A DNA stretch of 64,000 nt from Sipunculus nudus. Its lineage: Eukaryota; Annelida; Sipuncula; Golfingiida; Sipunculidae. Below, one piece after another: positions 14,845-61,295 of this stretch. Location of the stretch: contig CM049319.1 in the NCBI GenBank assembly GCA_026874595.1, forward strand, positions 61,016,917 to 61,080,916, in the 5' to 3' direction. Numbering within the stretch: the first letter of the stretch is position 1; each line of letters begins with the position of its first letter. Below the pieces are notes generated by a model. That model made no database searches, was not told the origin of the DNA, and saw nothing but the letters and a program-made list of their open reading frames with translations. Position numbers and translations under genes: made by a program.

Positions 14845-14977
14845 AGTCAGGAAGACAGCATTAATTAAGGCTGGCACAATATATCAAATGGTGAATCTAT
14901 ACAAGAGGAACTGTACATTAATCGATGCAAGAATCTGCTAAAAATGCTAAGAATCAATGCATTTGACTCAAAATTTC

Positions 14978-15405
14978 TCGTATCGGAGATGTCACAGTAT
15001 CCCCAGAAAATTAAGGCTAACCCCCTACTAAAATATAATAATAATTTACTGACACTTGACAAGGCCCAGGCCACCAGGGTCAAGGTCACAAATGTTTGAA
15101 ATTGTCTGACACCTGGGTGGAGACAATTCACTAATAAATCGGAAGAAAAGAAAATCAGTCATTTAAAAATTATATAGGTTTAAGTAAACCTTCGTATCGG
15201 AGATGTCACAGTATCCCCAGAAAATTAAGGCTAACCCCCTACTAAAATATAATAATAATTTACTGACACTTGACAAGGCCCAGGCCACCAGGGTCAAGGT
15301 CACAAATGTTTGAAATTGTCTGACACCTGGGTGGAGACAATTCACTAATAAATCGGAAGAAAAGAAAATCAGTCATTTAAAAATTATATAGGTTTAAGTA
15401 AACCT
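14978..15405. repeat. Perfect 214-bp tandem duplication
   Basis: 14978-15191 and 15192-15405 are identical base for base as far as I can read, followed by a diverged partial third unit (15406-15465, ataaatcagaagaaaagaaa...). The duplicated segment includes the subterminal gtatccccag block of element 2c. Identity this high implies a very recent event, or an assembly artefact. Confidence 0.95.
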
Positions 15406-15905
15406 ATTTAATAAATCAGAAGAAAAGAAAAGCAGTCATTTAAAAGTTATAGATTTGAGTAAACCTATTCCATGTGCGTTTGTCGTGTGATGGGAGGATT
15501 TCATCCAGATCCCAGACTTTGTCCTGGTTTGATTACCCGGTAGCTGGTACACATGTGACATCATGGACTGAATTTTATCAACAACTCAGATCTAGTAATG
15601 CATGTTATTTTAATTCTCTGCTGAAAATTTGGGACTGACAGAGGCAGAAATACTGTGTTTTTACTGAGATCTAGAATTTTTAGTCACAGGGGATTTCCCA
15701 GTATGTGATGTCACTGCTGAGTTGACAGTGCTCATCTAGATGTGCAAATAGTTTTTGAGCAAATCACACAGTGGTAAATAGATAGAAAAATTGTTTTTTT
15801 CCTCCAGGAATTGGGCATATTTTATGTAAAATCTATAATAATATTTTTTTTCATAGGCAATTATGTTATATGATAATATAATGAGATTTGGAATATGTTT
15901 GCCTG

Positions 15906-16321
15906 ACCTAATAGGGTTCACAAAAACCCTACGTTTCTTCAGGTTTTACCTTGAAAACAAGGTCTAGGTCAGTTGTCTTGAAAAAATCCAAGATATTGGT
16001 GGAAATATTTTTTGTTTCAAATCTGATGGAAATCTATCCAATAATTCCAAAAATTAGGGGTAAACAAAACTACTATATATTTGAAGATTTGACCTTGAAG
16101 ACCAAACTCAAGTTCACCTCTCTTTAAACAAATCTGAAATATATGTGTGTCAAATTTGTAGGGAACAGATGCAGTACTTCAAAAGTTATAGGGTTAACAA
16201 AAATCCTATATATTCTCACATTTGACCTTGAATAACAAGGTCAAGGTCACTAGTTTTCAAACAATTTGGAAACAAATTCGAAGAAAAGAAGACAGGGTAC
16301 TTCAAAAGTTATAGTGTTAAC
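15906..16321. repeat. Internal array of element 2c, 120-145 bp units
   Basis: Units recur around 'gttaacaaaaatcctatatatt' and its variants (15912, 16057, 16191, 16311), followed by 'tttgaccttgaa' and 'aaggtcaaggtcac', and preceded by 'cttcaaaagttatag'. The last unit is broken by element A and continues at 18952 with aaaaaccctatatatc. Confidence 0.75.
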
Positions 16322-16322
16322 A

Positions 16323-18955
16323 ACAAGGGACCTATGGGTCACGACGCTCAGCTGTTATTTATGATAAAAAATATTATTTAGAAATGAGGCACATGCTGGT
16401 TTTGTGTGGTAATAAATATAAGCTGTATTATGAGTTGTTGTTGTTTAGCTTATGAATGATTTTGATAGTACCTTTGGAGACAGGGAAGAGGATTGATTTC
16501 ATTTATTTTATTAACAATTGGAGTACTATTGTCACACAGATTTTGACTTGGCCATATAACTTATAAGCAGAACATATAATATAAGAGTTTAACTATTTAT
16601 TAAAAAAAATTACAAATATTGTCCCAAATATAATTTTTATTAAAAATAATAAGAGAATCATATGATTTTTTAAAATGAAATATAACTGATATGATTATTA
16701 AAATAATATTAAAGAATATTTTCATGAATGCATTCATGAATACATTTTGAAAGTATTTGCACGAGTATTCATATACTTTCATTTTTACCTGAATTCCCAT
16801 TCTTTATGCAAGAAATTTTATAATGGAGTACATAATCATATTCGTATTTAAATACAATTACAAAGTATTCGCACCATGTCTGGTATTTATTCAATTTTCA
16901 CCAAACAATGATGTTGAGAATCCAGAATATACAAAATTCACACATTTAAATAATGATCAAAAGTACCTGGTTTTATGGCTTTTATTTATATTAAAAAATA
17001 ACTGTGAAATATTCATTTTGGACTAATTTCACATCAATGTACACACTAGACACAGTAGGAATCTAGATTAATATTATCAACTGCATCTTTGTCTATCATT
17101 AATTTCCTTCATATGATCCCTAATGATTAGTAATGAATAATATGATTTACTTCTTTTTCATTAAAATTGAACTGAAAAATGCCATAGGTGACTGCATGGT
17201 GTTATTTGGAATATGTGACATTCTACCCATCGATACAAGATTCTTATATCATCAGTAACTGCAAGTTAATTTCCTGTTATTATAAACTAACAAATTCCTT
17301 TTCTATTTTTCTTTAATTTGTTATTAAAAACCAATAAAAATTTATTAATTTGTTGTTTATTGTTATGTTGTTGGTTAAAACTACTAGATGAGTTGGGTTG
17401 GACACCTGGATCAACTGTGGCTGGCCATAAGCTGCCTGGATTCCTGTATGCCTCGCCTCAAGCGTGCATAATTTGATGAAAGGTCAACAAGGTCAACATA
17501 CAGGTGACTCAAGAGGGGCTGGAGAGAGCCAAAGTCTGACAGGGTCTCATAAAAAACATTAATAAAAGCTACAATTTTTGGCCAATTTCTTTCAGCTTTC
17601 TAAACTAAAAAGCTGAAATCCTTATGTGTGCATGATATGAAAATTATATCAACAGTGCTCACGGGAAACAAACGTGCCATGGTCACAGTTGGGCAAAATT
17701 TAAGGTACTTATTTTATATTTATACTAATAACTTATAAAATTTGAAAAATTCAGAACTAATTTTGGGTATTCAATTGAATCTTGATTAAATAATGTTACA
17801 TCCCTGACAAAAAAATCTCTAGCAATGCCCTTGTTAAGGGAGTAAATATATTTCTTGATTTTTTACAAAGTGCATTATGTTTGGGCCCATAACTTAAAAC
17901 AATTACGCAATACTGACATCATTCTGGGATGTGCATAGAGAATGAAAAATATGTATATTGTTTATGATTAAAGTCAGATAAGTTGTTTTGATATGAGGCA
18001 GTCTTGAAGTGTAACAATGAGTTTTTAATGGAAAAATGAAGTTTTTAATTAATATCTCGAAGGTATTAAGTCCTAGTGACCAAATTCTTGGCATGGTAGG
18101 GGATTTTGGAGACATCTAACTGTATGCTGAATTTAAGGAACTTAGAGCTGAAGCTGGGGAGCTGAGCTTTTGCAAACTGCATAACACTAGCTTGATGTAT
18201 ACAATATGTTACAAGGTGCTTGAAAACTTGATTAAAATCTACAGTTTTTGATCAACTGGTTTCAAATTTTTGGTGTTAACAGTTGAAATGCTGACAAAAA
18301 CATGCTGTGAAAATTAAATCCAAAGTACTTACAGGAAAAAAACGTGCCATGGTCAAAGTTGGGCAAAATTTAAGGTACCAATTTTTTATTTTTATTAATA
18401 TTTTAAAAAATTTAAAAGATTTTCATCTAATTTTGGGTATACAATTTAATTTTGATTAATTAAAGTTATATTACTGGAAAAAAAGGTCCACAGCTTTAAC
18501 ATTTTTTGTGTTAAGTGATCAAATATCTTTCCTTATTTTTTTCAAAATGCATTATGTTAGGGCCCAGAACTTTTTTGAATTAAATAATACAGACATAATT
18601 TCTGGCATGTACATAGGAACTATATAGAGGAATATTTATGGTAAATATGAGGAAAAACAGATGAGTGGTTTTGATATTAGGCAGTCCTAAAGTGTGAAAA
18701 TAGGTTTTTAATAAAAAATTGAGGTTTTTCCTTAATTTCTCAAAGGAACGAAGTTGCAAAGACCCAGTTTTCGGCTTGGTAGGAGATCTTGGGGACATCT
18801 AACATTATGCCGAATTTTGGATTCCTAGGTCTTACAGTTTCAAAACGTGCCACATCTACGGACGGACGGACGGACGGACGGACGGACAGACGGACGGACG
18901 ACGGACAATGGACCACGACTATAGCTCAGATGACTTATAGTCAGCTGAGCTAAAA
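16323..18955 (-). mobile_element. Family 1 Helentron-like element, copy A
   Basis: The left end is aacaaggg, then a small hairpin GACC-TATG-GGTC (16329-16340), then the subterminal repeat GCTCAGCTG (16346-16354). The right end is a strong hairpin at 18923-18951: arms AGCTCAG and CTGAGCT, then an A/G mismatch, then TGACT and AGTCA around the loop TAT. An (ACGG)n microsatellite lies just inside it. The interior contains two related segments about 670 bp apart (aacgtgccatggtca at 17671 and 18341). The short open frames inside are shared with copy B only because the two copies are about 90% alike by eye; none looks selected. Terminal structure, tandem core and microsatellite fit the Helentron-derived non-autonomous elements (HINE/DINE-1 type) of animals. 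Confidence 0.8.
18857..18905. repeat. (ACGG)n microsatellite
   Basis: About eleven ACGG/GACG units with one interruption (gacagacgg), next to the right-end hairpin of element A. The equivalent tract in copy B (22537-22560) is much shorter, so the tract varies between copies. Confidence 0.95.
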
Positions 18956-19795
18956 ACCCTATATATCATCAGCTTTATTTTTAGGTCAAGTTTTCAAACT
19001 CTTCATTTTGATTCTCAGAAAGATACAACTATCTACTTCAGAAACAATGTTTTTGATTGTTTTTCACCAAATATGGAAATATTCAAGGTCAAGGCCACTC
19101 ATAGTGAAGGTCATGACCCTAATTTGAATAGACCATCCTTTAACTCATATCCATTCATGTGTATAATATGAAAGAAAACTGTCCATCAGTTTTTAACTAA
19201 TAATGTCACAGTACTGTGATGAGGCAATGATGGGGTATTAAAAGGCTCAAACATAAGAAAAAGATAATAAGAGGTGCCACCAGTCTCCAGTTATAAGACA
19301 AAGCTATTCAAGATCTTCAGTCAACTTAATTTGTGGACCAATCATGCAATATTCCTTGTGATATTTAAGATTATGTTTGATTTTCACCAAAAATAAGACC
19401 TATTAAAGGTCAAGGTCACCCCTAGTCAGGTCATGAACCCATTTTAAATAGCCTCCTTCCTCTCACCCATATCTATGCACATGTCAAGTTTGGTCAAGAT
19501 CTGTGAAAATTTGTTCAAGTACTGCACAGACAAGCCTTATCTGCAGCTGTATCATGCTAAAAGCACAGTATTCCCAACTTTGTCTGGGGATACAATAACT
19601 GATATAAAGGTAAATATAACCTTCACAACATGGTTCAGTGAATTTAAGTGGACAATTTTATTTTCATCTACATCTGTATCACATGGAAAACAACATAGAT
19701 AAAAAGGGCCTGTCGAGATATTTTAAGGCGAATTAGAAGCAGGCAAAACAACTTCAGCAATGACTTATTGACTTTCCATTTTTTTTAAGGCACCC

Positions 19796-22700
19796 AATCA
19801 CCTATAAAGCATGTTGAGTTAGCATGAAAAAGAGCTTCTTCCCTTTCAAATAAATGTGCCTGCCAAAAGATTGCCCTGAAACCGTTTGCTTACTCCTGTA
19901 AACGAGTGTTAAAAACAGTGAACCGGGCGTGATCGCTGGTGTCAACATGAACGCAAGTGCGCTTGGCCGTGAGCTGCATGGAGCCACAACACGTACCAAT
20001 CAGGAGATGCCCTGACTGACTTTAAACAAGGGACCTATGGGTCACTGCGCTCAGCTGTTATATATGATAAAAAAATATGATTTAGAAATGAGGCACATGC
20101 TGGTTTTGTGTGGTAATAAGTATAAGCTGTATTATGAGTTGTTGTTGTTTAGCTAAAGTATGTCTCCTTTGGAGACAGAGAAGAAAATTGATTTCATTTA
20201 TTTTATTAACAAATGGAGTACTATTGTCACACAGATTTTGACTTGGCCATATAACTTATAAGCAGAACATATAATATAAGAGTTTAACTATTTATTAAAA
20301 ATAATTACAAATATTGTCCCAGATATAATTTTTATTTAAAATAATAAGAGAATCGTATGATTTTTAAAATGAAATATAACTGAAATGATTATTAAAATAA
20401 TATTAAAGAATATATTCATGAATGCATTCATGAATACATTTGGAAAGAATTTGCACTGGTATTCATATACTTTCATTTTTACCTGAACTCCCATTCTTTA
20501 TGCAAGAAATTTTATAATGGAGTATATATTCATATTCGTATTAAAATACAATTGCAAAGTATTCCCACCATGTCTGGTATTTATTCAGTTTTCACCAAAC
20601 AATGGTGTTGAGAATCCAGGATGTACAAAATTCACACATTTAAATAATGATCATAAGTACCTGGTTTTATGGTATTTATTTATATTAAAAAAAATAAATG
20701 TGATATATTCATTTTGGACTAATTTCACATCAATGTACACACTAGACACAGTAGGAATCTATTTGTCTATCATTAATTTCCTTCATATGTTCCCTAATGA
20801 TTAGTAATGAATAATATGATTTACTTTTTATTATTAAAATTGAACTGAAAAATGCCATAGGTGACTGCATGGTGTTATTTGGAATACGTGACATTCTATC
20901 CATCCATACAAGATTCTTACATCATCAGTAACTGCAAGTTAATTCCCTATTATTATAAACTAACAAATTCCTTTTCTATTTTTCTTTAATTTGTTATTAA
21001 AAACCAATAAAAATTGATTAAATTATTGTTTATTGTTATGATGTTGGTTAAAACCACTAGATGAGTTGGGCTGGACACCTGGATCAACTGTGGCTGGCCA
21101 TAAGCTGCCTGGCTGCACCAGTATATGCCTCGCCTCAAGCATGCATAATTTGCTGAAAGTTCAACAAGGTCAACATACAGGTGACTCAAGAGTGGCTGGA
21201 GAGAGCCAAGGTCTGACATGGTCTCATAAAAACATTAATAAAAGCTACAATTTTTGGCATATTTCTTTCAGCTTTCTAAACTAAAAAGCTGAAATCCTTA
21301 TGTGTGCATGAAATGAAAATTATATAAACAGAGCTCACATGAAACAAAAGTGAAATGGTCAAAGTTGGGCAAAATTTAAGGTACTAATTTTATATCTATA
21401 CTAATAACTTATAAAATTTTAAAAATTCAGAACTAATTTTGGGTATTCAATTGAATCTTGATTAAATAATGTTACATCCCTCACAAAAAAATCTCTAGCT
21501 TCAGCAAGCCCCTTGTTAAGGGAGTAAATATATTTCTTGATTTTTTACAAAGTGCATTATGTTTGGGCCCATAACTTAAAACAATACTGACATCATTTCT
21601 GGCATGTGCACAGAGAATGTATAGAAAAACATGTATATTATATATGATTAAAGTCAGATCAGTGGTTTTGATAATAGGCAGTATTGAAGTGTAACAATAG
21701 GTTTATAATTGAAAAATGAAGTTTTTCATTAATATCTCAAAGGTATTAAGTCCAAGTGACCAAATTCTTGGCATGACAGGGGATTTTGGAGACATCTAAT
21801 TGTATGCCAAATTTTACAAACTGAGAGCTTAAGTTGGGGAGCTGAGCTCTTGCAAACTGCATAACACTAGCCTGATGTAAACAATAACGTTACATGGTGC
21901 TTGAAAACTTGAATAAAATCTACAGTTTTTGACCAACTGGTTTCAAATTTTTGGTGTTAACAGACAAAATGCTAACAAAAACATGCTGAGAAAATTAAAT
22001 CCACAGTACTTACAGGAAAAAAACGTGCCATGGTCAAAGTTAGGCAAAATTTAAGGTACCAATTTTTTATTTTTGTTAATATTTTAAAAAATTTACAAGA
22101 TTTTGATCTAATTTTGGGTATACAATTTAATTTTGATTAATTAAAGTTATATTACTTGAAAAAAGTCCATAGTTTTAACAAGTTTTGTGTTAAGTGATCA
22201 AATATCTTTCCTGATTTTTTACAAAATGCATTATGTTCTGGCCCATAACTTTCTTAAATTATACAATACAGACATAATTTCAGGCATGTACATAGGAACT
22301 ATATAGAGGAATATTTATGGTAAATATGAGGAAAAACAGATGAGTGGTTTTGATATTAGGCAGCCCTGAAGTGTGAAAATAGGTTTTTAATAAAAAATTG
22401 AGGTTTTTCCTTAATTCCTCAAAGGAACAAAATCGCAAAGACCCAGTTTTTGGCTTAGTAGGAGATCTTGGGGACATCTAACACTATGCCGAATTTTGGA
22501 TTCCTAGGTCTTACGGTTTCAAAACGTGCCACATCTACGGACGGACGGACGGACGACGGACAATGGACCACGACTATAGCTCAGATAACTTATAGTCAGC
22601 TGAGCTAAAAATTTAATACATGTTCCCGCTGGCTTAAACACCGCATGTGGTGCCTCTTAATCGGACCTCTGTCCATGCGGCCTTCTTATGGTAAACATAC

Positions 22701-24436: not shown

Positions 24437-24630
24437 AACTAGACATTTCTTGGCACCGCAGGTGCCAGAGTATCCCCAGACATAGTAGGCCCCCCCTCCT
24501 ACAAGAACAGACCCCCATTTTTAGCAGCATATACTGACACTTGGCATATTTATTGTTTATTCCATCTAACAATCCACAATCTTGTTGAAGATGTTGGTCC
24601 TGTGACCTTGATCTTTTTAAAGATGTGTCC

Positions 24631-26450
24631 TGTGACCTTGACCTTTGATCTCATAACCCCAAAATCAATTTGGGTCTTGCTTTTCCAATGGGACATATGC
24701 AAGTCAAGTTTGAAATCTATACATCAATAAAGCAGGAATTATCATCCAGAAACTTATTTTTGGACAGATGGCTCCTGTGACCTTCACCTTTGACCTTGTG
24801 ACCTCAGAATTGATAGTGTTCTTCCTCTCTTGGCAGGAGAACTATATGTGCAAGATGAAAGATATGAGATGAAATGTTTGGCTAAAAATGCATCCACATC
24901 TTTTTAAAGATGTGTCCTGTGACCTTGACCTTTGACCTCATGACCCCAAAATCAATTCGGGTCTTACTTTTCCAATGGGACATATACAAGTCAAGTTTGA
25001 AATCCATACATCAATAAAAGCAGGAATTATCATCCAGAAACTAATTTTTGGACATATGGCTCCTGTGACCTTCATCTTTGACCTTGTGACCTCAAAATTG
25101 ATAGGGGTCTTCCACTCTTGGCAGGTGAACTATATGTGCAAGAGGAAAGATCTGAGATGAATTGTTTGGCTGAAAATGCATCCACAATCTTTTTAAAGAG
25201 GTTTCCTGTGACCTTGACCTTTGACCTCATGACCCCAAAATCAATTTGGGTCTTGCTTTTCTAATGGGTCAATAACAAAGCCAAGTTTGAAATCCATACA
25301 TCAGTAAAAGATGGAATTATCATCCAGAAACTAATTTTTGGACAGATGGCTCTGTGACCTTCACCTTTGACCTTTTGACCTCGACACTGATAGGGTTCTT
25401 CCTCTCTTGGCAGGTGAACTATATGTGCAAGATGAAAGACCTGAGATGAAATGTTTGGCTGAAAATGCATCCACATCTTTTTAAAGATGTGACCTTGACC
25501 TTTGACCTCATGACCCCAAAATCAATTTGGGTCTTGCTTTTTCAATGGGACATATATAAGTCAAGTTTGAAATCCATACATCAATAAAAGCAGGAATTAT
25601 CATCCAGAAACTAATTTTTGGACAGATGGCTCCTGTGACCTTCACCTTTGACCTTGTGACCTCAAAATTGATAGGGGTCTTCCTCTATTGGCAGATGACT
25701 TATATGTGCAAGATGAAAGGTCTGAGATGAAATGTTTGGCTGAAAATGCATCCACATCTTTTTAAAGATGTGACCTTGACCTTTGACCTCATGACCCCAA
25801 AATCAATTTGGGTCTTGCTTTTCCAATGGGACATATATAAGTCAAGTTTGAAATCCATACATCAATAAAAGCAGGAATTATCATCGAGAAACTAATTTTT
25901 GGACATATGGCTCCTGTGACCTTCACCTTTGACCTTGTGACCTCAAAATTGATAGGGGTCTTCCACTCTTGGCAGGTGAACTATATGTGCAAGATGAAAG
26001 ATCTGAGATGAATTGTTGGCTGAAAATGCATCCACAATCTTTTTAAAGAGGTTTCCTGTGACCTTGACCTTTGACCTCATGACCCCAAAATCAATTTGGG
26101 TCTTGCTTTTTCAATGGGACATATATAAGTCAATTTTGAAATCATTACATCAATAGAAGCAGGAATTATCATCCAGAAACTAATTTTTGGACAGATAGCT
26201 CCTGTGGCCTTGACCTTTGACCTTGTGACCCCAAAATTTATATGGATCATCCATTATTGGCAAGTGAGCTATATATTCAAGATGGAAGACCTGGGATGAA
26301 AGTTTGGCTTAAAATGCATCCACAGTATCTTTTAAAATGCCAGTCCAGTGACCTTGACCTTTGACCTCATGACCCTAGAACCTATAGGGTTCTTACTTTA
26401 GTGGTGGGCCATACTTAAGTCATGTTTGAAATCCATATGGCTATCAACAC
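24631..26450. repeat. 285-bp tandem array with AGGTCA-type motifs
   Basis: Units are anchored by 'gtgaccttgacctttgacct', starting at 24631, 24918, 25207, 25488, 25769, 26057 and 26347 (spacings 281-290). Each unit also has a second, weaker block 'gtgaccttcacctttgacc', 'catccagaaactaatttttgg', 'tcaagtttgaaatccataca' and 'aaaatgcatccacatctt'. Diverged units of the same type occur in elements 2b and C. Confidence 0.95.
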
Positions 26451-26620
26451 TGGAGATATCATAAGAGGTGTGTGATTTTCACCATATATGGCAATATTCA
26501 AGGTCAAGGCCACTATCATAGGAAAGGTCATGACCCCAATTTAAACTAGAATACGGGTAGTCGACAAGCGACTACTTGTATCCGCCTAAATCAGAGTGGA
26601 ACGGGTGAAGTGTTGCATAT

Positions 26621-28020
26621 CAGCATGGATGTCTGCAGCCAAATTGTGTATGTAGGTTGCGCTACCTACCAAAAAATCCAGAAAGCCGTCCAAGTTGTAT
26701 ACATATGCAAAATTTAAGGCAGATAAGTCAAACCACTATATTGTATATGAGTGATTTTTGCCCTTGGCAGACAAACAGATGGACGCTGTGCAAAAAAGGG
26801 TTGCAGGTGGCGCCACCAGTTAAGCGTATGATAAAGAGCTTTGTGAGAACTATACACATGCAAAATTTTGGCCCAATTGGTCAAACAGTTCCCTAGATAT
26901 GAGCTTGGATGTCTGCAGCGTAAACTTGATTGTAGGTGGCGCCACCTGTCATAAAATCAGAAAAGCTATTCAGGATGTATAAGCATGCAGAATTTCAGGT
27001 GAATTAGTCAAACCACTGCAGAGATATGAGTGATTTTAACCCAAGGCAGACGAACAGCTGGACACTGTGCAAACATGGTTGCAGGTGGCGCCACCATTTT
27101 TTGTGTATGTTATAAAGCTCTCCAAGGGCTACATTTGTGCAAAAAAATTTTCCTGATCAATCAAACGGTTCCTGAGATATGAGCTTGGATGTCTGCAGCG
27201 TAAACATGAATGTAGGTGGCGCCACCTGTCATAAAATCAGAAAAGCTATCCAGGATGTATACGCATGCCAAATTTCAGGTGAATTAGTCAAGTCACTGCA
27301 GAGATATGAGTGATTTTAACCCAAGGCAGACAAACAGATGGACACTGTACAAACATGGTTGCAGGTAGCGGCACCATTTTTGGTGTATGTTATAAAGCTC
27401 TCCAAGGGCTACATTTGTGCAAAAGAATTTTCCTGATCGGTCAAACGGTTCCCGAGATATGAGCTTGGATGTCTGCAGCGTAAACGTGAATGTAGGTGGC
27501 GCCACCTGTCATAAAATCAGATAAGCTATCCAGGATGTATACGCATGCCAAATTTCAGGTGAATTAGTCAAGTCACTGCAGAGATATGAGTGATTTTAAC
27601 CCAAGGCAGACGAACAGATGGACACTGTGCAAACATGGTTGCAGGTGGCGCCACCATTTTTGGTGTATGTTATAAAGCTCTCCAAGGGCTACATTTGTGC
27701 AAAAGAATTTTCCTGATCGGTCAAACGGTTCCCGAGATATGAGCTTGGATGTCTGCAGCGTCAACGTGAATGTAGGTGGCGCCACCTGTCATAAAATCAG
27801 AAAAGCTATCCAGGATGTTTGCGCATGCCGAATTTCAGGTGAATTAGTCAAGTCACTGCAGAGATATGAGTGATTTTAACCCAAGGCAGACGAACAGATG
27901 GACACTGTGCAAACATGGTTGCAGGTGGCGCCACCATTTTTGGTGTATGTTATAAAGCTCTCCGAGGGCTACATTTGTGCAAAAAAATTTTCCTGATCGG
28001 TCAAACGGTTCCCGAGATAT
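26621..28020. repeat. 280-bp tandem array, five units, dimeric
   Basis: Unit starts at 26621, 26901, 27181, 27461 and 27741 are exactly 280 bp apart. The last three units are nearly identical. Each unit is a dimer: both halves carry the 12-bp palindrome GGTGGCGCCACC or a variant, spaced alternately about 131 and 149 bp (26806, 26935, 27084, 27215, 27495, 27644, 27775, 27924), and both halves end in a 'gagatatgag' block. Copies of family 3 elsewhere have two or three units. Confidence 0.95.
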
Positions 28021-28186
28021 GTGGGTTTATGTGTGGAAACAGACGCACAAACGGACGCAGAGCGCAGAGGAAAGGTCAGAGGTCAAAACAAAATCGGGGC
28101 GCAGCAGTTCACATGTGACCCGAACATAATCCCGGGTTTCGGAAAATTCCGCCCAGCGGTTACGGAGGAGTTCTCCGGACACCTAC

Positions 28187-28206
28187 GCGGCGGCGGCGGC
28201 GGCGGC
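28187..28206. repeat. (CGG)n tract
   Basis: A short pure CGG/GGC run near the right end of element 3a. A similar tract lies at 28672-28688 near the right end of element 2a. The corresponding positions of the other copies are less regular (for example 43365-43390). Confidence 0.9.
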
Positions 28207-28736
28207 CAGCTGAAAACATAGTATCCGCAAAACTCTGTTTTGGCGGATACAATAAGCATTATCCCATAACCCATACCTATGTATATGCATAATATAAAAG
28301 AAATCTGTCCATTAGTTCTTGACTTATAATGCTCACAGTGCTGTAAGGTGGCAATTTAGGGGGTATTAAACGGCACGAAAACAAGTAAAGAATAATAGAT
28401 GGCGCCACCAGTTTCTGGAACATGACAACCCTATCCATGATCTTCCATCAACTTGATTTTGGGATAAATCCATGCAAGATTTCTTGAGATATTAAAGAAT
28501 TTGTGTGATTTTCCCCAAAATTGGACCTATTCAAGGTCAAGGACACTCTCCTTGTAAAGGTCATGACCTCATTTTAAATAGGCGTCGTCCTCTTACCCAT
28601 ATCTATACATATACCAAGTTTGGTAAAGTTCCGTGAAATATTTTTTGGGTTATCGCGCCAACAAGATTCATATGCGGCGGCGGCGGCAGGACCGGTATGA
28701 AAACATAGTATCCCCCGACTTTGTCTGGGGATACAA

Positions 28737-42245: not shown

Positions 42246-43436
42246 ACTAGAATACGGATAGTCAACAAGCGACTACATGTATCCTCCGAAATCAGAGTGG
42301 GACGGGTGAAGTGAGGCATGGATTGAGTGGAAAGGGGAAATAGAGGGAGGTGTGTTCCATATTAGCATGGATGTCTGCAGCCAAAATGTGAATGTAGGTT
42401 GCGCCACCTGTCATAAAATCAAGAAAGCTATCCAAGATGTCTAAAAATGCATAATTTTAGGCAGATAAGTGAAACCACTTCCTAGATATGAGTGATTTCA
42501 TCCCACGGCAGACATACAGACGGACCCTGTGCAAAAAATGGTTACAGGTGGTGCCACTAGTTTTGTGTATGATAAAGAGCTATGTGAAATCTATACACAT
42601 GCAAAATTTTGGCCCAATTGATCAAATGGTTCCCGAGATATATGCCTGAATGTCTGCAGCGTAAATGTAAAAGTAGCTGGCGCCACCTGCCACACAATCC
42701 AGAAAGCTATCCAAGATGTATAAACCTGCAAAATTTCAGGCAGGTAAGTCAAACTACTGCAAAGATATGAGTAATTTTATCCCACGACATACAAACAGAT
42801 GGACGCTGCGCAAAAATGGTTACAGGTGGAGCCTCCAGTTTTGCATATGATAAAGAACTATGTGAGATCTTGACACATGCAAAATTTTAGCCCAATCTGT
42901 CAAATGGTTCCCGAGTTATGAGCTTGGATGTCTGCAGCGTAAAGGTCAATTTAGGTGGCACCACCTGTCTTAAAATCAAGAAAGCTGTCCAGGATGTATA
43001 CACATGCAAAATTTCAGGTGGATAAGCCAAACCAATGCAGAGATATGAGTGATTTTATCCTAAGGCAGATGAACAGATGGATCCTGTGCAAAAATGGTTG
43101 CAGGTGGTGCCACCATTTTTTATGTATGTTATAAAGCTATCCAAAGGCTACATTTGTGCAAAATTTTTTCCTGATCGGTCAAATGGTTCCCGAGATATGT
43201 GGGTGAATGTGTCAAAACAGATGCACAGATGGACGCAGAGCGCAGAGGAAAGGTCAGAAGTCTTAACAAAATTGGGGTGCAGCAGTTCACATGTGACCCG
43301 AACATAATCCCAGGTTTCGTAAAATTCTGCCCAGCGGTTACGGAGGAGTTCTCCGGACACCTTTGCGGCGGTGGCAGCAGTGGCGGTGACGGCAGGCTGA
43401 AAACCTAGTATCCGCAAAACATTTTGGTGGATACAA
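42246..43436 (-). mobile_element. Family 3 Helentron-like element, copy 3b, three array units
   Basis: The left end is aactagaatacgg, with a decayed hairpin (TAGTC/GACTA) and a mutated subterminal repeat (gtatcctccg). The right end hairpin is at 43408-43434 (GTATCCGC and GGTGGATAC). Inside are three 277-280 bp units (about 42364, 42642 and 42919, ending at 43198) and the same right part as copy 3a (gcagcagttcacatgtgacc, ggaggagttctccgg). It is inserted into array D between A and A of a ccctaattac-like site. Non-coding. Confidence 0.8.
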
Positions 43437-46551: not shown

Positions 46552-47447
46552 ACTAGAATACGGGTAGTCAACAAACGACTATGTGTATCCGCAAAAATTA
46601 GAGTGGAACGGGTGAAGTGAGGCATGGATTGAGTGGCAAGGGGAAATTGAGTAAGTTGTGTTGCATATTAGCATGGATGTCTATAGCTGAAATGTGTATG
46701 TAGGTTGGGCCACCTACCACAAATCCAGCTGTCCAAGTTGTATACATATGCAAAATTTTAGGCAGTAAAGCCAAACCACTCCAGAGATATGAGTGATTTT
46801 AGCCCACGGCAGACAAACAGACAGATGCTGTGCAAAAATGGTTGCAGATGACCCCTCCAGTTTTGTGTATGATCAAGAGCTGTGTGAGATCTATACACAT
46901 GCAAAATTTTGGCCCAATCGGTCAAACGGTTCCCAAGATATGGGCTTGGATGTCTGCAGCTTAAACAAGAAAGTAGGTGGCGCAACCTGTCATAAAATCA
47001 AGAAAGCTGTCCAGTATGTATAAATGCAAAATTTTAGGCAGTTATGTCAAACCACTACAGAGATATGAGTGATTTTAACCCAAGGCAGACGAACAGATGG
47101 ACACTGTGCGAACATGGTTGCAGGTGGTGCCACCATTTTTATGTATGTTATAAAGCTATCCAAGGGCTACATTTGTACAAAATTTTTTCCTGATCGGTCA
47201 AACATTTCCTGAGATATGCGAGTTTAAGTGTGGAAACAGACACACAAATTGACGCTGGGCAGAGGAAAAGTCAGAGGTCAACGCCAATTAGTTAGGCACT
47301 AGTTCACATGTTACCCGATAATTGGTGTAAGTTTTGGAAAAATCCGTCCAGTAGTCTCAGAGGAGTTCTCCGGTAACAAAGCAGTGGCAGTGCTGGAACC
47401 TGGTCAAAAACATAGTATCCACAAAAGTTTGTTTTGGTGGAATACAA
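46552..47447 (-). mobile_element. Family 3 Helentron-like element, copy 3c, two array units
   Basis: Left end aactagaatacgggtagtc, subterminal gtatccgcaaaa (46585-46596), right end gtatccacaaaa...gttttggtggaatac (47415-47445) with a decayed hairpin. Two units (about 46670 and 46942) of the 280-bp type, then the family right part (gttcacatgttacccg, gaggagttctccgg). This is the shortest family 3 copy. Non-coding. Confidence 0.8.
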
Positions 47448-53179: not shown

Positions 53180-54602
53180 AACTAGGGACCCATGGGTCTT
53201 GACTCTCAGCTGCATTTGTTAATAAGGATATATTTATGAGGATTTCCAAAATATTGGTCCTGTGTTCAGTTTGAAGCCAACCTGTCTAACCAAACTGGAG
53301 TTATCCTCCATAAACTAATTTGTGAATGGATGGGCCCTGTTACCTTAACCTTTGACCTTATGACCCTAAAATCAAAAGGAAACTTTCCCTATTGGCAGGT
53401 GCACCACATGTTGATGATGAAAGGATTGAGATGGAAAGTTTGGCTTAAAATGCATCCACAATCTTTCTAAAGTAGTGGGTCCTGTGACCTTGACCATTGA
53501 TCTCATGAACCCAGAATCAACAGTTCTTACTTTTAGTGGTGGGCCATATATAAAAGTCAAGTTAGAAACCAATATTTCAAACTTAACTGGTGTTATCATC
53601 TGGAAACTAATATGTGGATTGATGGCCCCCATGACCTTCACCTTGTGAGCCCAAAATCCATCAGTTATTTCCACTATTGGCAGGTGAGCAACATCTGGAA
53701 GATAGAATGTTTGGGGACAGAAAGTTTGGCTAAAAATATGTCAACGATCTTTTTAAAGGAGTGGGTCCTGTGACCTTGACCTTTGGCCTTATAACACCAA
53801 ACTCAAAAGGGTTCTTACATTATTGGGGGTTCATATATAAGTCAAAATTGAAACAAATATGTCAATCGAAACTTGAGTTATCATCCAGAAACAATTATAT
53901 GGACAGATGGGCCCCTGTGACGATGACCTTTGACCTTGTGACCCCCAAATCAATCAGTTTCTTCCCCTATTGGCAGCTCAGCTATATGTGCAAGATGGAA
54001 GGTTTTAGATGACAATTTTGGCTTAAAATGCGTCCACAATCTTTCTTAATAAGTGGGTACTGTGACCTTGACCTCTGACCTCATGACCCCAAAACTGAAC
54101 AGAATCTTCCCCTATTGGCGGGTAAGCAGTATCTTGAAGATGGAAAGGTTTGGGATGAAAAGTTTGGCTTCAAATGCATATGCATTCTTTTTAAAGAAAT
54201 GAGTCCTGGAACCATGACCTTTGATATGTTGGACCCCAAAATCCACAAGATTCTTACTTTAGTGGGGAGTCATATATAAGTTAAGTTTGAAACCAATATG
54301 ACAAACTAAACTGGAGTTATTATCTGGATGATAATTTGTGAACAGATGGCCCCTGTGACCTTGACCTTTGACCATGTGACCCCAAATTCATTTATGCTCT
54401 CCCCATACTGGCAAGTCAGCTAAATGTGCAAAACGGAAAGTTTGGGATGAAAAGCTTCGCTAAAAATGCAGCCATTATCTTTTTGAAAATCATTAAGGTT
54501 CTTGCTTTAGTGGTAGGCCATATGTAAGTCAAGTTTGAAATTATTGTGTCAATACAACCTGGAGTTATCATCTGGAAACAAATTTGTGAGGATGGACGGA
54601 TG

Positions 54603-54647
<45 letters not shown>

Positions 54648-55143
54648 GGTGATAACTATATGGCATCCACTTGTGATCAATAAACACACCAGGTTTTGGG
54701 ACACAAGATGTAATAACAGCTGAAAAACTGACATGATTGTTGTCATTTTATAGTAAAAATTTTTTTTTAAATATTCCTTGAAATAACAAAAAATACAGGT
54801 GGCACCACCACTTTTCGGGAACTGACAAAACCAGTCATGGTCAATATTCAAGGCAAGATTCATGACAATCCATGCATTAATTTTCAAGATATTGGAGGTT
54901 TTGTATTATATTTTTTATTATTCTGGAGGGTACTTTCAAGGCTCAGAGGATATAGGTCGCAGTGACCTAATTTCAGGTTTCCAAGGAGATTTTTATTGAC
55001 CTCCCTGAATATTCACTTAGAAGTTTCTAGGTCCAGCAGTTTGTGCCCTGCTAACGGATGGCTGGACGGCCGGACAACCGAACGGACAACAGACAAAGCG
55101 CCATTCCTATACCTAAGTTGACTTACAGTCAGCTGAGCTAAAG
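53180..55143 (-). mobile_element. Family 1 Helentron-like element, copy C, with family-2-type array
   Basis: The left end is aactaggg, then the palindrome GACCCATGGGTC (53187-53198), then CTCAGCTG (53205-53212). The right end has TGACT-TAC-AGTCA and then GCTGAGCT (about 55119-55139). These termini are of family 1. The interior is not like A or B, however: it is a 288-293 bp array of the type found in family 2 (anchors at about 53482, 53770, 54060 and 54353), then a (GACA)n tract, a GGTGGCACCACC block and one unit of the type seen in array D. Non-coding. Confidence 0.75.
54593..54648. repeat. (GACA)n microsatellite
   Basis: About twelve GACA units with one aaac interruption, at the right border of the array in element C, where HINE-type elements often carry microsatellites. 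Confidence 0.95.
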
Positions 55144-55572
55144 ATCTTTAAGAGAAAATTGGAATATATGAAAAGAGAAAACATTCTTGAAAATAATAAA
55201 AGCAGACAAATTTTATCCATATGAAAGCAAAGTCCAGATTTTCATGAGTGTTGGCATCAAATGCAGGACTATTTGAATAAGCATGTCTCTTTAGGATTCA
55301 TTAAGATACCACATCTCTTATGGATACATTTAGATACCTCAAGCAGTGATTGCTGACTGATCATATGCAGCAGGGCATCTGGAGGCCCAGTGGCATCATG
55401 GGATAACATCTGAAGCAGTGGATGCGAGCCATCCAGGCTTTGTCCTGCGCAGCCTTCAATATGAAGGCAATATGATCAAATCCCAAAAGTCTGCGCTTAC
55501 AGATTTTCTGAGGTTTTTTTTATTTTGAAAACATACAATGTTGATGATTATTGATAATACAAACAAAATGAC
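55144..55572. other. No gene seen
   Basis: Unique sequence without repeat structure. The part at 55330-55460 is less AT-rich. Confidence 0.4.
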
Positions 55573-55814
55573 TAATATATGTTTTCATTTATTCATCTTT
55601 ATGTTTTAACATATAAATGTTGGATGTTGACATCCTTTATTTATGTTACAGCAAGAATTCCATCACTGCTGCTACTTAGGTAGCCAGGTTGTCTAATATA
55701 TGTTTTCATTGATTCATCTTTTTGTTTTAACATATAAATGTTGGATGTTGACATCCTTTATTTATGTTACAGCAAGAATTCCATCACTGCTGCTACTAAG
55801 GTAGCCAGGTTGTC
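55573..55814. repeat. 121-bp tandem duplication
   Basis: 55573-55693 and 55694-55814 differ at three positions only. Each copy contains 'catcctttatttatgttacag' followed by 28 bases and then ag-gtagcc, that is, a segment with splice-acceptor and donor-like borders (55652-55679 and 55773-55800). Confidence 0.95.
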
Positions 55815-57693
55815 TTATAACCCAACCACACATAACCTCTATAAAAGACAGAAATCATCAGTGCTTCTTTAAATGATAATGTCAGATGGTATATAGTGTA
55901 AACAGTCATAAGAATAAGTTCCTCAAATGTCTTTACATAATCAATCACATGCATTAACCTGGTCAACATCACTTGCAGCATCTTGGTAAAAAGTGCCAAA
56001 AACTACAACTTTACTCCCAAGGAGCTGAACCAGAGAGGGCTTTATGGGTTCAAATATCTTCCCTTTTATACAGAGACAAATTATTACTGCAGCTTATTTT
56101 TATAATTTCAAGGCTAAACCTATCCACTCTCTATTTTGGAACATTGGCAGTCTCTAAGGATATCATAAATCAGTCAGTGTAAATTGTAAAGCACGCACTT
56201 CCAAAAAAGCCTTGATCTAACAGTGGTAATCTTAGGGTTTATCCAATGGAATTTTCCCTTTTGGGATTATCTGTAGGTTTACAACATATACTGTTTCTCA
56301 TATCTATGAGAAATCTGATCCCTTGAGAATGCTATCATAACCTTTGACACAATCTAGGCGCAGGATTGGGGGGGATTTTAACTACCTAAATTGTAAATAG
56401 TACTGTGCATGCAGTTAACTCGACTTACCTGTAGTAACCATGACAACACTGTGAGACTCGTTTACTGGAGTCTGATGAAGGTGTGGAGATGTGGTACAAC
56501 CCATCATCAATCATGCATCAAGACACCCAACATAATCTGAAACATTGGTTAACTTTAAATAATAATAAAATTTCAAATAAACATTAACAAATTAGTCATG
56601 TAAATTTTTTAAAATTCAATTTCAAGGTTAATTGGTGATCTATTAAATCTATCTTTTCAATTTTTTTTTGTGCAGCATCTTAAACCATCACATCATCCCA
56701 CGTTTCCTTTTTTTCAATTATCCTTTAAAAAAAGTATAGTTTATGAACATAAATAAATTTTTGTTAAAAGGTGAGTACATGAGTATACTCTTCTTGAGTG
56801 AGCAGGAACCCTGTACAAACATATATAATTTTATACATTAACATTTTTAAAAGTATCTACCATTATTTAAAATCTTTGTGTAAAAAATATCATCAAATGA
56901 ACACGGACTGTCATGTCACATCCTGTCACTCAAACCATACATTTTATCAATAGCTCATCACTGAAAAATGATAACATGCAATCAAATATCACCATTCAGA
57001 CCATGCATGCTAAAATAATCACACTGAGAACTTATCACCCATCTCCAAACAAATCATACTACTGGTAGGAGTTATTTTATATTTCATAACTTTTCATCCA
57101 GCATATTTTAATCAGTATGTATTCCATTTCTTGAAAACTGAAAAATATAAATGCTGCCTAGAGTTCAGATGATATCCGTTTTTTTATGTTATGATAATGA
57201 TACTGCAATATATCAAGATAATAATGATATCGTTTCTGGTGTTGAAACTCAAGTACTTCTCATCATATGTCTACTGACAGTACTGTACTTAGTCTTGTGT
57301 TTCTAGGTTCACCTATATGCCGCAAAATCACCATAGTTTTAGGTGTCAATGACTCTGTGGAACACCATAATCTTGAACATAAAATACTAATATATTTTTC
57401 AATATTACAAATTTTTCTGCTTTACAAAATTATATGCAATTCATTAAAATTACAAACACATTGTATCCTTGAAAATAAATGACAAAGAAAACTTTGTGAT
57501 GCCATTTTCTTAAAATTGGTAATAATCCTAAAAAGGCATGTTTGTATACTAAAATTCTGGACAGACAAGAAAAATACCATGATGTTATGATAAAGGGGAA
57601 GTAAACGATAAGATAATTGCAGCTGTCAGATTTCGGGATAGTCCTGGATATTGGCCACATTCAAACCCTAGCCGTACCTCTATTAATCTGACA
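55815..57693. other. No gene seen
   Basis: AT-rich unique sequence with short open frames. No element ends or RNA genes recognised. Confidence 0.4.
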
Positions 57694-58219
57694 CAATCAC
57701 TTATAATAATAAAGCATGTTGAATTAACATGAAAAATAGCTTTTCCCATTTAATATAACTTTGTACCTGTCAAAATATTGCCCTGAAACTGTCTTCTTAC
57801 TACAAACCGTTTGTTAACAAGTTTGACAACCAGTGGACAAGGCATGGTCACAGGTGTCAACATAAACACAGTACATGTATAGCCTGGTCTCAATGCGTGT
57901 GTCAACATAAGTGTATAACTTTGAAGATACCCTGATACCCTGGATAAAATAAAATGTAATACATGTTTCCACTGGCTGAAACAATGCGTGTTGTGGCTCA
58001 CAATCAGACCTCTGGTCAGTTGGTCACGCCGCCTTGTTATATGGTAAACAGACACATTTACTGTGTTTACCAACAAGCAATGCTGTAACAAGGTCTTAAA
58101 CAGCCATATGTGAGGTACTGAGTCTGCATCCTTGGATGGTTTTACTGGAAAACTTGTAGGCAGCAAAACTGAACTGAAGCTGTGAACGCATAATATTGCT
58201 CCTGACAATGTCCTTTTAA
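57694..58219. repeat. Interspersed repeat family 5, copy 2 (uninterrupted)
   Basis: Aligns with 19796-20024 plus 22611-22856, so it shows the site of element B before insertion. A 163-residue minus-strand open frame covers it (58241-57750), the longest protein-like non-tandem frame in the window. The other copy keeps the frame only in part (19999-19802 shows a related FMLTP... segment), and I see no known domain. The repeat's class and true ends are unknown. Confidence 0.75.
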
Positions 58220-58500
58220 ATCTCACATTAACCAAGCTCATTCTTTGTTAGTTGCTCTTTAAGTTTTCAGGAGGAGGCACTAAAAATCCTGCATCAGGAT
58301 CACTTTTCCCTGTCAGTTACTTTGCTTTTTCATGAATTATTATTTTTTTTCTGCATTATGGGGATGTAATTGTACTTTGTCTTTGGTAATCAAGCATTTG
58401 AAACTGAGAGAAGAAGGACTGGCTCTTGATTTAGCTTGATCAACCAATAAATGATCCCTACATTTACAAATTATCTCAAGAGTCCCAACTGTACACACAT
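58220..58500. other. No gene seen
   Basis: Unique sequence between repeat family 5 and element 2b. Confidence 0.4.
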
Positions 58501-60013
58501 AACTAGACATTTCTTGACACCGCAGGTGCCAGAGTATCCCCAGACATAGTACGGCTCCCCCCCTTTAAGAATAGGCCCCAATTTTTAGCAGCAATAACTG
58601 ACACTTGGCAAGCAATTATTGTTTCTTCCATCTATCAATCCACAATCTTTTTGAAAAAAGTTGGTCCTGTGACCTTGACCTTTTGGCACATCATAAGGCT
58701 ATCCACGATCTTCTGTCACCTTGATTTTGGGACCAATCCATGCAACAATCTTGAATATTTAAGAATTTGTGTAATTTTCAGCAGAAATGGACCTATTCAA
58801 GGTCAAGGTCACTCTCTTAGCCTCCTGTGACCTTGACCTTTGACCTCATGACCCCAAAATCAATTTGGGTCTTGCTTTTCCAATGGCACATATACAAGTC
58901 AAGTTTGAAATCCATACATCAATAAAAGCAGGAATTATCATCTAGAAACTAATTTTTGGACAGATGGCTCCTGTGACCTTCACCTTTGACCTTAAAATTG
59001 ATAGGGGTCTTCCACTTTTGGCAGGTGAACTATATATGCAAGATGAAAGATCCGAGATAAATTGTTAGGCTGAAAATGCATCCACAATCTTTTTAAAGAT
59101 GTGTCCTTTGACCTTGACCTTTGACCTCATGACCCCAAAATCAATTCGGGTCTTGCTTTTCAAATAGGTCATATACAAGTCAAGTTTGAAATCCATACAT
59201 CAATAAAAGCAGGAATTATCATCCAGAAACTAATTTTTGACAGATAGCTCCTGTGGCCTTGACCTTTGACCTTGTGACCCCAAAATTGATATGGATCATC
59301 CACTATTGGCCAGTGAGTTGTATATTCAAAATGGAAGACCTGGGATGAAAGTTTTGGCAAAAAATGCATCCACAGTATCTTTTAAGATGCGAGTCTGGTG
59401 ACCTTGACCTTTGAAATCCAAATGGCTATCAACACTGGAGATATCATAAGAGGTGTGTGATTTTCACCAAATATGGACACATTAAAGGTCAAGGCCACTC
59501 TCATGGTAAAGGTCATGACCCAAATGTAAATAGACCTCATCCCATAAACTATAGATCTCTACATGTGCATAATATGAAAGAAATCTGTCCATTAGGTTTT
59601 GACTTATAATGCTTACAGTACTGTCAAGTGGCAATTATGGGGGTATTTAAAGGCGTAAAAACAAGAAAAGGATAATAGGTCGGGCCACCAGTTTCCGGTA
59701 TATCACAAGGCTATCCAAGATCTTCTGTCACCTTGAATTTTGGACCAGTCCATGCGAGCTTACTTGGAATATTCAAGAATTTGTGTTATTTTCAGCAAAA
59801 ATGGACCTATTCAAGGGCAAGGTCACTCCCTAGCATAGGTCATGACCCCATTTTGAAAAGGCTTCATCCCCTAACCTATATCTATACAAATGTAAAGTTT
59901 GAAAAAGATCAGTGAAATATATTTTGAGTTATCCCGCTCACAAGGTTTTTCTGCTGCGGCCATGGCGGAACCTCCGTGAAACCATAGTATCCCGACTTTG
60001 TCTGGGGATACAA
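58501..60013 (-). mobile_element. Family 2 Helentron-like element, copy 2b
   Basis: The left end is aactagacatttctt, then the hairpin (GACACC-GCA-GGTGCC, one arm change, 58516-58530), then GTATCCCCAGAC (58534-58545). The right hairpin is at 59987-60011 (GTATCCC and GGGGATAC, inner GAC/GTC). Inside are a part of the right module out of place (58690-58810), about three 282-290 bp units (anchors 58828, 59110, 59400) and then the right module of 2a without the nested element 3a. It is the best uninterrupted reference for family 2 here. Non-coding. Confidence 0.85.
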
Positions 60014-60184
60014 ATATCTGATCAAACCTTTCATTTATAATACTTAGATGACAATGACTATGTCAGATATCTACAGCAGAGTTATTTATGCATGCAAAAT
60101 CCTGCCAAAAATGGGGCATGAGAGCATTGAACATCATAAAGCAGATCTTCAATGATGCAGTGCACCTTAACCCCTTAACATAAA
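60014..60184. other. Spacer between elements 2b and 3d
   Basis: Short unique sequence, nothing recognised. Confidence 0.4.
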
Positions 60185-61295
60185 ACTAGAATACGGGAAG
60201 TCGACAAGCGACTGTGTATCCGCCAAAATCAAGAGTAGAACGGGTGAAGTGAGGCATGGATTGAGTGGCAAGGGGAAATAGAGCAAGTTGTGTTGCATAT
60301 TAGCATGGATGTCTGCCAGGTAAACATGATTGTAGGTGGCGCAACCTGTTATTTGAACAAGAAACTATCCACATGCAAAATTTCAGGTTGAAAAGTCAAA
60401 CCACTCCAGAGATATGAGTGATTTATCCCACAGCAGACAAACAGATGGACGCTGTGCAAAAATGGCTGCAGGTGGCACCACCATTTTTGTGTATGTTATA
60501 AAGCTATCCAAGGGCTACATTTGTGTAAAATTATTTTCCTGATTGGTCAATGAGTCTGGAGATATAAGCATTAATGTCTGCAGCATGAACTTGATTGTAG
60601 GTGGCGCCACCTTCATAAAATCAAGAAAGCTGTGCGGGATGTATAAGCATGCCGAATTTCAGGTAATTTGGTCAAACCACTGCAGAGATATGAGTGATTT
60701 TAACCCAAGGCAGACAAACAGATGGACATTGTGCAAACATGGCTACAGGTGGCGCCACCAGATTTGCTTCTGATAAAGAGCTATGTGAGATCTATACACA
60801 TGCAAAATTTTGGCCCAATCGGTCCAACGGTTCCTGAGATATGACCTTGGATGTCTGCTATCCAGGATATATACGCATGCTGAATTTCAGGTGAATTTGT
60901 CAAACCACTGCAGAGATATGAGTGAATTTAAACCAAGGCAGATGAACAGATGGACACTGTGCAAACAAGGTTGCAGGTGGCGCCACCATTTTCTGTGTAT
61001 GATATAAAACTATCCAAGGGCTACATTTGTACAATTTTTTTTCCTATCGGTCAAGTGGTTCCTGAGATATGTGGGTTTGTGTGGAAACAGACACACAAAT
61101 GGATGATGGGCATAGAGGAAAGGTAAGAGATTAACGCCAACTGATTAGGCACCAGTTCACGTGACGCGATAACTGATGCAAGTTTCTGAAAAATCCGTCC
61201 AGTAGTCTCAGAGGAGTTCTCTGGAAATGAACGCTGCGGCAGCGGAACCCGGTCAAAAACATAGTATCCACATAACTTTGTTTTCGTGGACACAA
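60185..61295 (-). mobile_element. Family 3 Helentron-like element, copy 3d, three array units
   Basis: Left end aactagaatacggg, hairpin AGTCG-ACAAG-CGACT (60199-60213), subterminal GTATCCGCCAAAA (60216-60228). Right end gtatccacataac...gttttcgtggacac (61264-61291), decayed. Units at about 60301, 60563 and 60842; the last one has a deletion after 'gatgtctgc'. GGTGGCGCCACC occurs three times (near 60600, 60747 and 60977). Non-coding. Confidence 0.8.

What the first reader, a model, noticed from the sequence alone, without database searches (positions are those of the whole stretch)
14963..61295. Three sequence-unrelated element families share one terminal blueprint
Families 1, 2 and 3 have different arm sequences (AGCTCAG, GTATCCCC, GTATCCGC). 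Yet each has a 25-30 nt terminal hairpin with a 3-base loop and an internal mismatch, an inverted copy of one arm 25-45 bp inside the other end, a second small hairpin there, and then CTAG or CTTG followed by TT. Compensating changes between the two ends within each family suggest that the pairing itself is selected, perhaps as the recognition structure of the rolling-circle enzyme.
Basis: partly seen in the sequence, partly recalled or inferred. Interest (0 to 1): 0.75.

Follow-up and report, generated by a model that had tools for sequence, protein, structure and literature searches.

The report
Helentron transposon ends with shared hairpins
The repeats in this window are short copies of a known kind of rolling-circle jumping gene (Helentrons); their ends keep one hairpin design although their sequences differ, and the far end usually matches the starting tip better than the tip's own hairpin arm does.

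Summary
The blueprint is real, far above chance, and already known: it is the terminal signature of Helitron2/Helentron rolling-circle transposons (Bao & Jurka 2013, who also reported compensatory changes and proposed that the ends pair).

Added here: (1) Family 1's ends bound a 15.7-16.1 kb element with a RepHel gene, so its likely enzyme is identified. (2) Two further families with other arms, A and 5, share the layout; A contains its own RepHel gene. (3) In families 1, 2, 3 and 5, and in the C11 and C7 copies of A, the 5' hairpin (arms a:b) has one defect at position 7-9, and the distant 3' repeat c complements a across it. Computed a:c duplexes are 3.6-4.6 kcal/mol stronger than a:b in the best form of each family, but only 0.3 (family 3) and 1.6 (family 1) in the window's own copies. 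Three A tips at one C5 locus have no defect.

Family 3 double mutants are as enriched at an unpaired control site (odds ratio 3.20) as at a paired one (3.21).

No autonomous partner was found for families 2, 3 or 5.

The parts
26546..28250 (-). Family 3 element, inserted inside the family 2 element 24439-28734
   Evidence: 5' hairpin and 3' CTAG, exact-structure scan; ends listed
28221..28250 (-). Family 3 5' hairpin: arms a and b, 3-nt loop, bulged C at position 9 of a
   Evidence: folded with DNA parameters
26546..26586 (-). Family 3 3' end: repeat c (GGCGGATAC), second hairpin, CTAG; TT follows at 26544-26545
24439..28734 (-). Family 2 element with 281-bp tandem core
28708..28734 (-). Family 2 5' hairpin, A/G mismatch at position 9
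24439..24482 (-). Family 2 3' end: 13-nt repeat c, second hairpin, CTAG
58503..60011 (-). Second family 2 element; its 5' hairpin has lost two bases of arm b
16324..18951 (-). Family 1 element (hairpin 18923-18951, CTTG 16324-16327)
   Evidence: first 101 bp 85% identical to the autonomous element
20027..22606 (-). Family 1 element (hairpin 22578-22606, CTTG 20027-20030)
42247..43434 (-). Divergent family 3-like element
   Evidence: 3' end 3 substitutions from the motif; 5' hairpin
46553..47445 (-). Divergent family 3-like element
   Evidence: 3' end 4 substitutions from the motif; 5' hairpin
60186..61293 (-). Divergent family 3-like element
   Evidence: 3' end; 5' hairpin 6 substitutions from the motif
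53182..55138 (-). Probable family 1-like element ending in CTAG
   Evidence: 5' end 5 and 3' end 8 substitutions from the motifs; pairing of the two ends is by position only

Best explanation
Families 1-3 are non-autonomous Helentrons (HINEs, Helitron2 group), moved by RepHel enzymes encoded elsewhere in the same genome. The shared blueprint is the cis-acting end structure of this transposon group: a 5' terminal hairpin made of the 5' repeat (a) and a partner arm (b), and near the 3' end an inverted copy of a (called c), a second hairpin, and CTAG or CTTG before TT. Shown: the anatomy; family 1 ends around RepHel sequence; the same layout in two further families; c complements a across the hairpin defect in families 1, 2, 3, 5 and most of A. 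Inferred: the enzyme nicks at the T-flanked ends and copies the element by rolling circle. When the 3' end becomes single-stranded, c displaces the weaker arm b from a, which marks the end of the element and directs closure. That the ends pair at this stage was proposed in 2013; the recurrent defect that favours c over b is what I add. My odds are about 0.9 for the identity and about 0.3 for the strand-exchange step.
For: C10 and C5 copies share homology only between the family 1 ends, 15,727 and 16,126 bp apart, and include RepHel sequence 98% identical over about 7 kb to a C17 copy with a 2,342-codon stop-to-stop frame. Rep and PIF1 domains lie far above cut-off. 29 of 33 terminal 3' bases match the window's family 1. 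Family A copies on C11, C7 and C5 end at the same layout. 20 of 20 family 5 3' ends read end in CTAG then TT, which the search pattern did not ask for. Defects and c complementarity. Energies.
Against: No RepHel element bounded by family 2, 3 or 5 ends was found. The complete family 1 copies (C10, C5) have interrupted frames, and the C17 copy's 5' end was not reached. Three family A tips at one C5 locus have a defect-free hairpin. In the window's own copies a:c is stronger than a:b by only 0.3 (family 3) and 1.6 kcal/mol (family 1). Within-family covariation is absent at the pair tested. The family 1 nuclease match is below Pfam's cut-off in the C17 copy (20.6 vs 24.5 bits).
Confidence: 0.85

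Rival explanations
1. Repeats a and c are one double-stranded binding site of each family's RepHel, placed in inverted orientation. Their complementarity follows from protein recognition, not from a pairing with c. Arm b and its defect form a separate recognition hairpin.
For: Families 1 and A have different arms and different RepHel groups, as expected if each enzyme reads its own site. Bacterial IS200/IS605 transposases read hairpins with a bulged base (recalled, no call). All complementarity data fit this equally well.
Against: It does not by itself predict that the hairpin arm b should lack exactly what c has, as seen in families 1, 2, 3, 5 and part of A.
Confidence: 0.5
2. The hairpin defects are incidental: b is freely decaying, while a and c are constrained, so a:c being better than a:b has no role.
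For: Three family A tips at one C5 locus are defect-free. The a:c advantage is small in the window's family 1 and 3 forms. Only five families were examined, two of them related.
Against: A single defect at position 7-9 recurs in families 1, 2, 3 and 5 and in A copies on two chromosomes, as mismatches in three and bulges in two. If the odd arm out were equally often a, b or c, four of four families with b odd has probability about 0.012 (my arithmetic, small and partly related sample).
Confidence: 0.4
3. The shared ends are arbitrary parts of longer repeats, or ordinary inverted-repeat (MITE-type) DNA transposons.
For: Some family 3 copies are passengers in a larger repeat with shared flanks (L010, L012, L025, L044, L047).
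Against: Homology between independent copies stops at the described ends: C10 vs C5 for family 1 and C11, C7 and C5 for family A. Among 19 fetched family 5 3' ends on C1 there are 17 distinct flanks. The inverted repeats are asymmetric, and RepHel lies inside.
Confidence: 0.03

Closest known systems
Helitron2 group (Bao & Jurka 2013, PMC3627910; passages seen)
   Same: 5' hairpin involving the 5' ATIR, 8-15 bp asymmetric inverted repeats, 3' ATIR 20-30 bp from the end and upstream of a 3' hairpin; compensatory changes between two related elements; proposal that ATIR pairing breaks the 5' hairpin; some members with the gene reversed, as in family A.
   Different: That report's compensatory evidence is one pair of elements. 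The recurrent hairpin defect repaired by the 3' repeat is not stated in the passages I saw. Its group lacks the endonuclease domain; family A here has one.
Helentrons and HINE / DINE-1 (Thomas et al. 2014, PMC4067079, passages seen; DINE-1, PMC2374699, passages seen)
   Same: subTIRs, 3' palindrome, TT insertion preference, RepHel with C-terminal endonuclease, non-autonomous copies outnumbering the partner. In DINE-1 a 13-bp subTIR goes with a second 5' repeat only 'partially complementary' to it.
   Different: Other hosts and arm sequences; no energetic comparison of the two pairings in the passages seen.
Cg_HINE of Crassostrea gigas (PMC7492417; passages and section 7 seen)
   Same: 11-12 bp subTIR, complementary IR of 7-12 bp, GTCY-type microsatellite, satellite-like tandem core, 3' palindrome.
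   Different: There no autonomous partner could be related to the Cg_HINEs. Here family 1 is tied to a RepHel element.
Fusarium FoHeli (PMC5148889; passages seen)
   Same: ATIRs with 5' hairpin; 12-bp repeat longer than the 5-bp hairpin stem.
   Different: Hairpins printed there appear perfect; ends are ATTTT or CTCCTGT rather than CTAG/CTTG.

Membership tests
Helitron2 / Helentron | RepHel protein (Rep plus PIF1 helicase) in the autonomous element | tested here: met
   Families 1 and A: PF14214 and PF05970 far above cut-off inside their ends. Families 2, 3 and 5: no partner found.
Helentron | C-terminal endonuclease fused to RepHel | tested here: met
   Family A: PF03372 49.9 bits, cut-off 24.5. 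Family 1 group: 20.6 bits in the C17 copy, below cut-off; a 93%-identical relative on C13 has PF14529 33.2, cut-off 27.4. So clear for A, suggestive for family 1.
Helitron2 / Helentron | Asymmetric terminal inverted repeats, 5' copy at the tip, 3' copy 20-30 bp inside | tested here: met
   a:c runs of 9-13 bp, c ending 21-32 nt before the 3' end; 0-2 of 2,000 shuffles reach the run.
Helitron2 / Helentron | 5' hairpin including the 5' repeat and a 3' hairpin after the 3' repeat | tested here: met
   All five families.
Helentron | Insertion in TT or T-rich sites without target-site duplication | tested here: inconclusive
   T or TT flanks throughout. One empty-site comparison places the insertion in a T-run, but the joined flanks have two more bases there than the diverged homologue.
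Helitron2 / Helentron | Catalytic Rep motifs of the Helentron type, RepHel phylogeny | not tested
   Only Pfam domains were scored.
Helitron2 / Helentron | Rolling-circle transposition, circular intermediate | not testable with these tools
   Head-to-tail junctions of family A ends on C11 are compatible with it.
Canonical Helitron (Helitron1) | 5' TC start, CTRR end, a hairpin only at the 3' end, A/T insertion | tested here: not met
   CTAG ends of families 2, 3 and 5 fit CTRR, but the 5' start is not TC, a 5' hairpin is present, and flanks are T/T.
MITE-type DNA transposon | Symmetric terminal inverted repeats with target-site duplication | tested here: not met
   The 3' repeat lies 21-32 nt inside. 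Target-site duplication was not settled.

The most novel reading that the evidence does not exclude
Helentron ends encode a one-way DNA strand-exchange switch. A deliberately imperfect 5' hairpin, with one mismatch or bulge at position 7-9, is kept weaker by roughly 4 kcal/mol than the pairing of the same tip with the 3' repeat, so completing the rolling circle flips the structure and tells the enzyme where the element ends.
Probability: 0.25. Interest if true: 0.7.

Novelty: new member of a known kind. Interest (0 to 1): 0.42.

Why it matters
How Helitron-type enzymes recognise the end of the element is not settled, and reading past the end is thought to explain gene capture (recalled). The defect rule turns a 2013 suggestion into a quantitative prediction, that Helentron 5' hairpins usually carry a defect which the 3' repeat repairs. 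It can be tested on existing repeat libraries and with short oligonucleotides. Tying a HINE family to a RepHel element also answers, for this genome, a question left open for oyster HINEs (PMC7492417).

Tried and rejected
Within-family covariation: rejected at the pair tested in family 3 (odds ratios equal at paired and unpaired sites). The 42 paired double mutants include 6 in one tandem array on C15; counting it once gives 2.83. Only the AGA-loop form and one pair were tested.

The GCAGATAC 3' variant as a compensated subfamily: rejected, 0 of 5 recovered 5' ends match. 5' ends were recovered in 17 of 40 fetched loci. Two of those 17 (L028, L041) have a compensated a:b pair at position 6 with c unchanged; position 6 is a CpG site.

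Family A RepHel as partner of families 2 and 3: rejected, because it has its own ends. Other RepHel groups: five 7-kb stretches downstream of Rep domains held no family 2/3 end pair, but did hold a family 5 element (L065) and a family 1 5' end (L067). The C3/C5 pair is a duplicated unit of over 13 kb whose ends were not reached. The site on C7 matching L065 in a sister locus (L089) has no family 5 end, so family 5 is not that RepHel group's end.

More families by structure: a looser scan of window and loci was not clearly better than its controls (11 window rows, controls 0-6). A stricter scan of 324,530 bases found only families 2, 3 and 5 plus one spurious hit among 8 rows; Markov controls 2, 0, 0. 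One search timed out and was rerun in simpler form.

Pairing ends by coordinate used 39 picked rows of the roughly 100 listed and 66 of the roughly 100 listed: 27 paired, 39 not. The 27 is a lower bound, and rows are biased to intact outer stems.

Literature: searches showed no statement of the defect rule in the listings or passages I saw. One search failed on a term and was not repeated.

Full report
What was checked. The window lies in a 1.43-Gb eukaryotic assembly. I believe it is a bivalve from its HINE-like repeats, but this was not tested. The elements concerned lie on the minus strand, so 5' below means the high-coordinate end in the window.

Anatomy. Each element begins with a T-flanked hairpin: arm a, a 3-4 nt loop, arm b. 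Near the other end lies c, complementary to a, then a second hairpin, then CTAG or CTTG, then TT. In the window the clear cases are family 3 at 26546-28250, family 2 at 24439-28734 (interrupted by the former) and 58503-60011, and family 1 at 16324-18951 and 20027-22606. Families 2 and 3 have tandem cores of about 280 bp; family 1 has an ACGG microsatellite and repeats about 670 bp apart. In the genome there are 12,623 matches to the family 2/3 5' hairpin pattern against 64 for the reversed control, and 8,819 to the family 3 3' end against 19. Families 2 and 3 share GTATCC at the tip and ACTATGTTTTCA after the hairpin, so they are related.

The enzyme. Pfam Helitron_like_N has 143 scored matches in the genome, a lower bound. 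Three near-identical RepHel loci (C17, C10, C5) were compared. Homology between the C10 and C5 copies starts within a base of TTTTTAGCTCAGCTGACTGAAAGTCATCTGAGCT and ends at CAGCTGAGC..GACCC..CTTG, with different flanks; the elements measure 15,727 and 16,126 bp. These are the ends of window family 1: 85% identity over 101 bp at the 5' end and 29 of the last 33 bases at the 3' end. The C17 copy shares the 3' end and carries a stop-to-stop frame of 2,342 codons in the sense orientation; its 5' end was not reached. The C10 and C5 frames are interrupted. The C-terminal 1,799 residues of the C17 frame hold Rep and PIF1 domains and a sub-threshold nuclease match. Family 1 is therefore a Helentron-type element with a RepHel partner in the same genome.

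A fourth family (A). A second RepHel group (2,235-codon frame; OTU, Rep, PIF1 and Exo_endo_phos domains) has copies on C11, C7, C5 and C17 that are 97-100% alike over about 4.7 kb. Comparing outer parts shows ends at GCTTGCCGGAAATC-TTC-GATTTCCGCAAGC and ATTTCCGGCAAGC..GTGACCTCTGGTCAT-CTTG-TT when read opposite to the gene. The layout is the same, with other arms and the gene reversed, as in some published Helitron2 elements. On C11 copies of these ends abut head to tail.

A fifth family. A stretch downstream of another RepHel locus held a 3'-end-like structure. Its 17-mer occurs 2,317 times, control 0. Nineteen of the roughly 100 listed places were fetched; all 19, plus the first, end CTAG then TT, and two pairs share flanks. 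The complete element in L065 starts TATGCCCC-C-GCCA-CAAA-TGGC-C-GGGGCATA, and the same element came up in a structural scan.

The defect rule. Folding with DNA parameters shows one defect between outer and inner stem: position 8 in family 1 (C/T), 9 in family 2 (A/G), 9 in family 3 (bulged C), 7 in the C11 and C7 copies of family A (bulged C), and 9 in family 5 (C/C). Another energy routine draws the two bulges at 8 and 6, because equal bases are adjacent. In these cases c complements a across that position: a:c runs are 9-13 bp, with 0-2 of 2,000 shuffles of the 3' end reaching the run. Exceptions: the family 2 copy at 58503-60011 has lost two bases of b, and three family A tips at one C5 locus have perfect 11-13 bp stems; of six family A tips seen, three have a bulge. 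Computed duplex energies are a:b -12.0 to -13.8 and a:c -16.1 to -18.3 kcal/mol for the best form of each family. For the window's family 1 and for the ATTTAGG form of family 3, which is the window's form, a:c is -13.6 and -12.7, an advantage of only 1.6 and 0.3. The rule was noted, after families 1-3 and A; family 5 is the only out-of-sample family.

Covariation. Exact counts in one family 3 form: unchanged 2,981; arm a C6 to T 205; its partner in b, G to A, 190; both 42; a non-partner site in b, C to T, 168; a C6 to T with the non-partner change 37. Odds ratios are 3.21 (2.24-4.62) for partners and 3.20 (2.18-4.70) for non-partners. The excess of double mutants is therefore explained by differing copy ages. 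For ends not chosen by their 5' sequence, 40 loci were fetched: 38 of the 39 unpaired places, plus two chosen for the GCAGATAC variant. In 17 the 5' end was recovered; two show a compensated a:b pair, neither with c changed to match. Complementarity is thus kept between families (source lineages), with no sign of it among decaying copies.

How it probably works. Described for this group: RepHel enzymes, T-rich targets, hairpins at both ends. Proposed in 2013: pairing of the two ATIRs breaks the 5' hairpin and sets the replication endpoint. My reading adds that the hairpin tends to be imperfect where c is perfect, so exchange is favoured in one direction. The rival, that a and c are one protein-binding site in inverted orientation, explains the same complementarity and cannot be excluded from sequence. 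DINE-1 shows a similar asymmetry (13-bp subTIR, second repeat 'partially complementary'), and C. gigas HINEs have 11-12 bp subTIRs with 7-12 bp IRs.

Verdict. Its reading as the end structure of a rolling-circle system is right but published. The within-family compensation argument fails at the pair tested. The partner of family 1 and the recurrent, not universal, hairpin defect are the additions.

Noticed in passing
L060 and L062 (G000 C11), around the family A ends: Family A ends abut head to tail on C11: CTTG-TT directly followed by the next hairpin tip, on both sides of the RepHel copy.
   Followed up: partly
G000 C10 end of the family 1 autonomous element, and L070: The family 1 autonomous element and a family 5 element both end immediately before TTTATCATATATAACAGCTGAGC, the T-run about 45 bp from the 3' end of family 1 elements, as if that T-run were a favoured target.
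   Followed up: no
G000 C10 and C5 family 1 autonomous elements, about 1.05 kb from the 5' end: A second, inner copy of the family 1 5' end (hairpin plus GTCC-type microsatellite) lies inside both copies.
   Followed up: no
window 14978-15405: Perfect 214-bp tandem duplication containing a family 2-like 3' repeat without CTAG.
   Followed up: no
G000 C15:63412063-63430578: Six copies of a mutant family 3 hairpin about 3.7 kb apart on one strand, apparently a tandem array of a larger unit.
   Followed up: no
L049/L056 and L050/L057 (G000 C3 and C5): A RepHel-containing unit of over 13 kb, 99.5% identical on two chromosomes; ends not reached.
   Followed up: partly
window 9070-9588: 51-bp tandem array of 10 copies, unrelated to the elements.
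   Followed up: no
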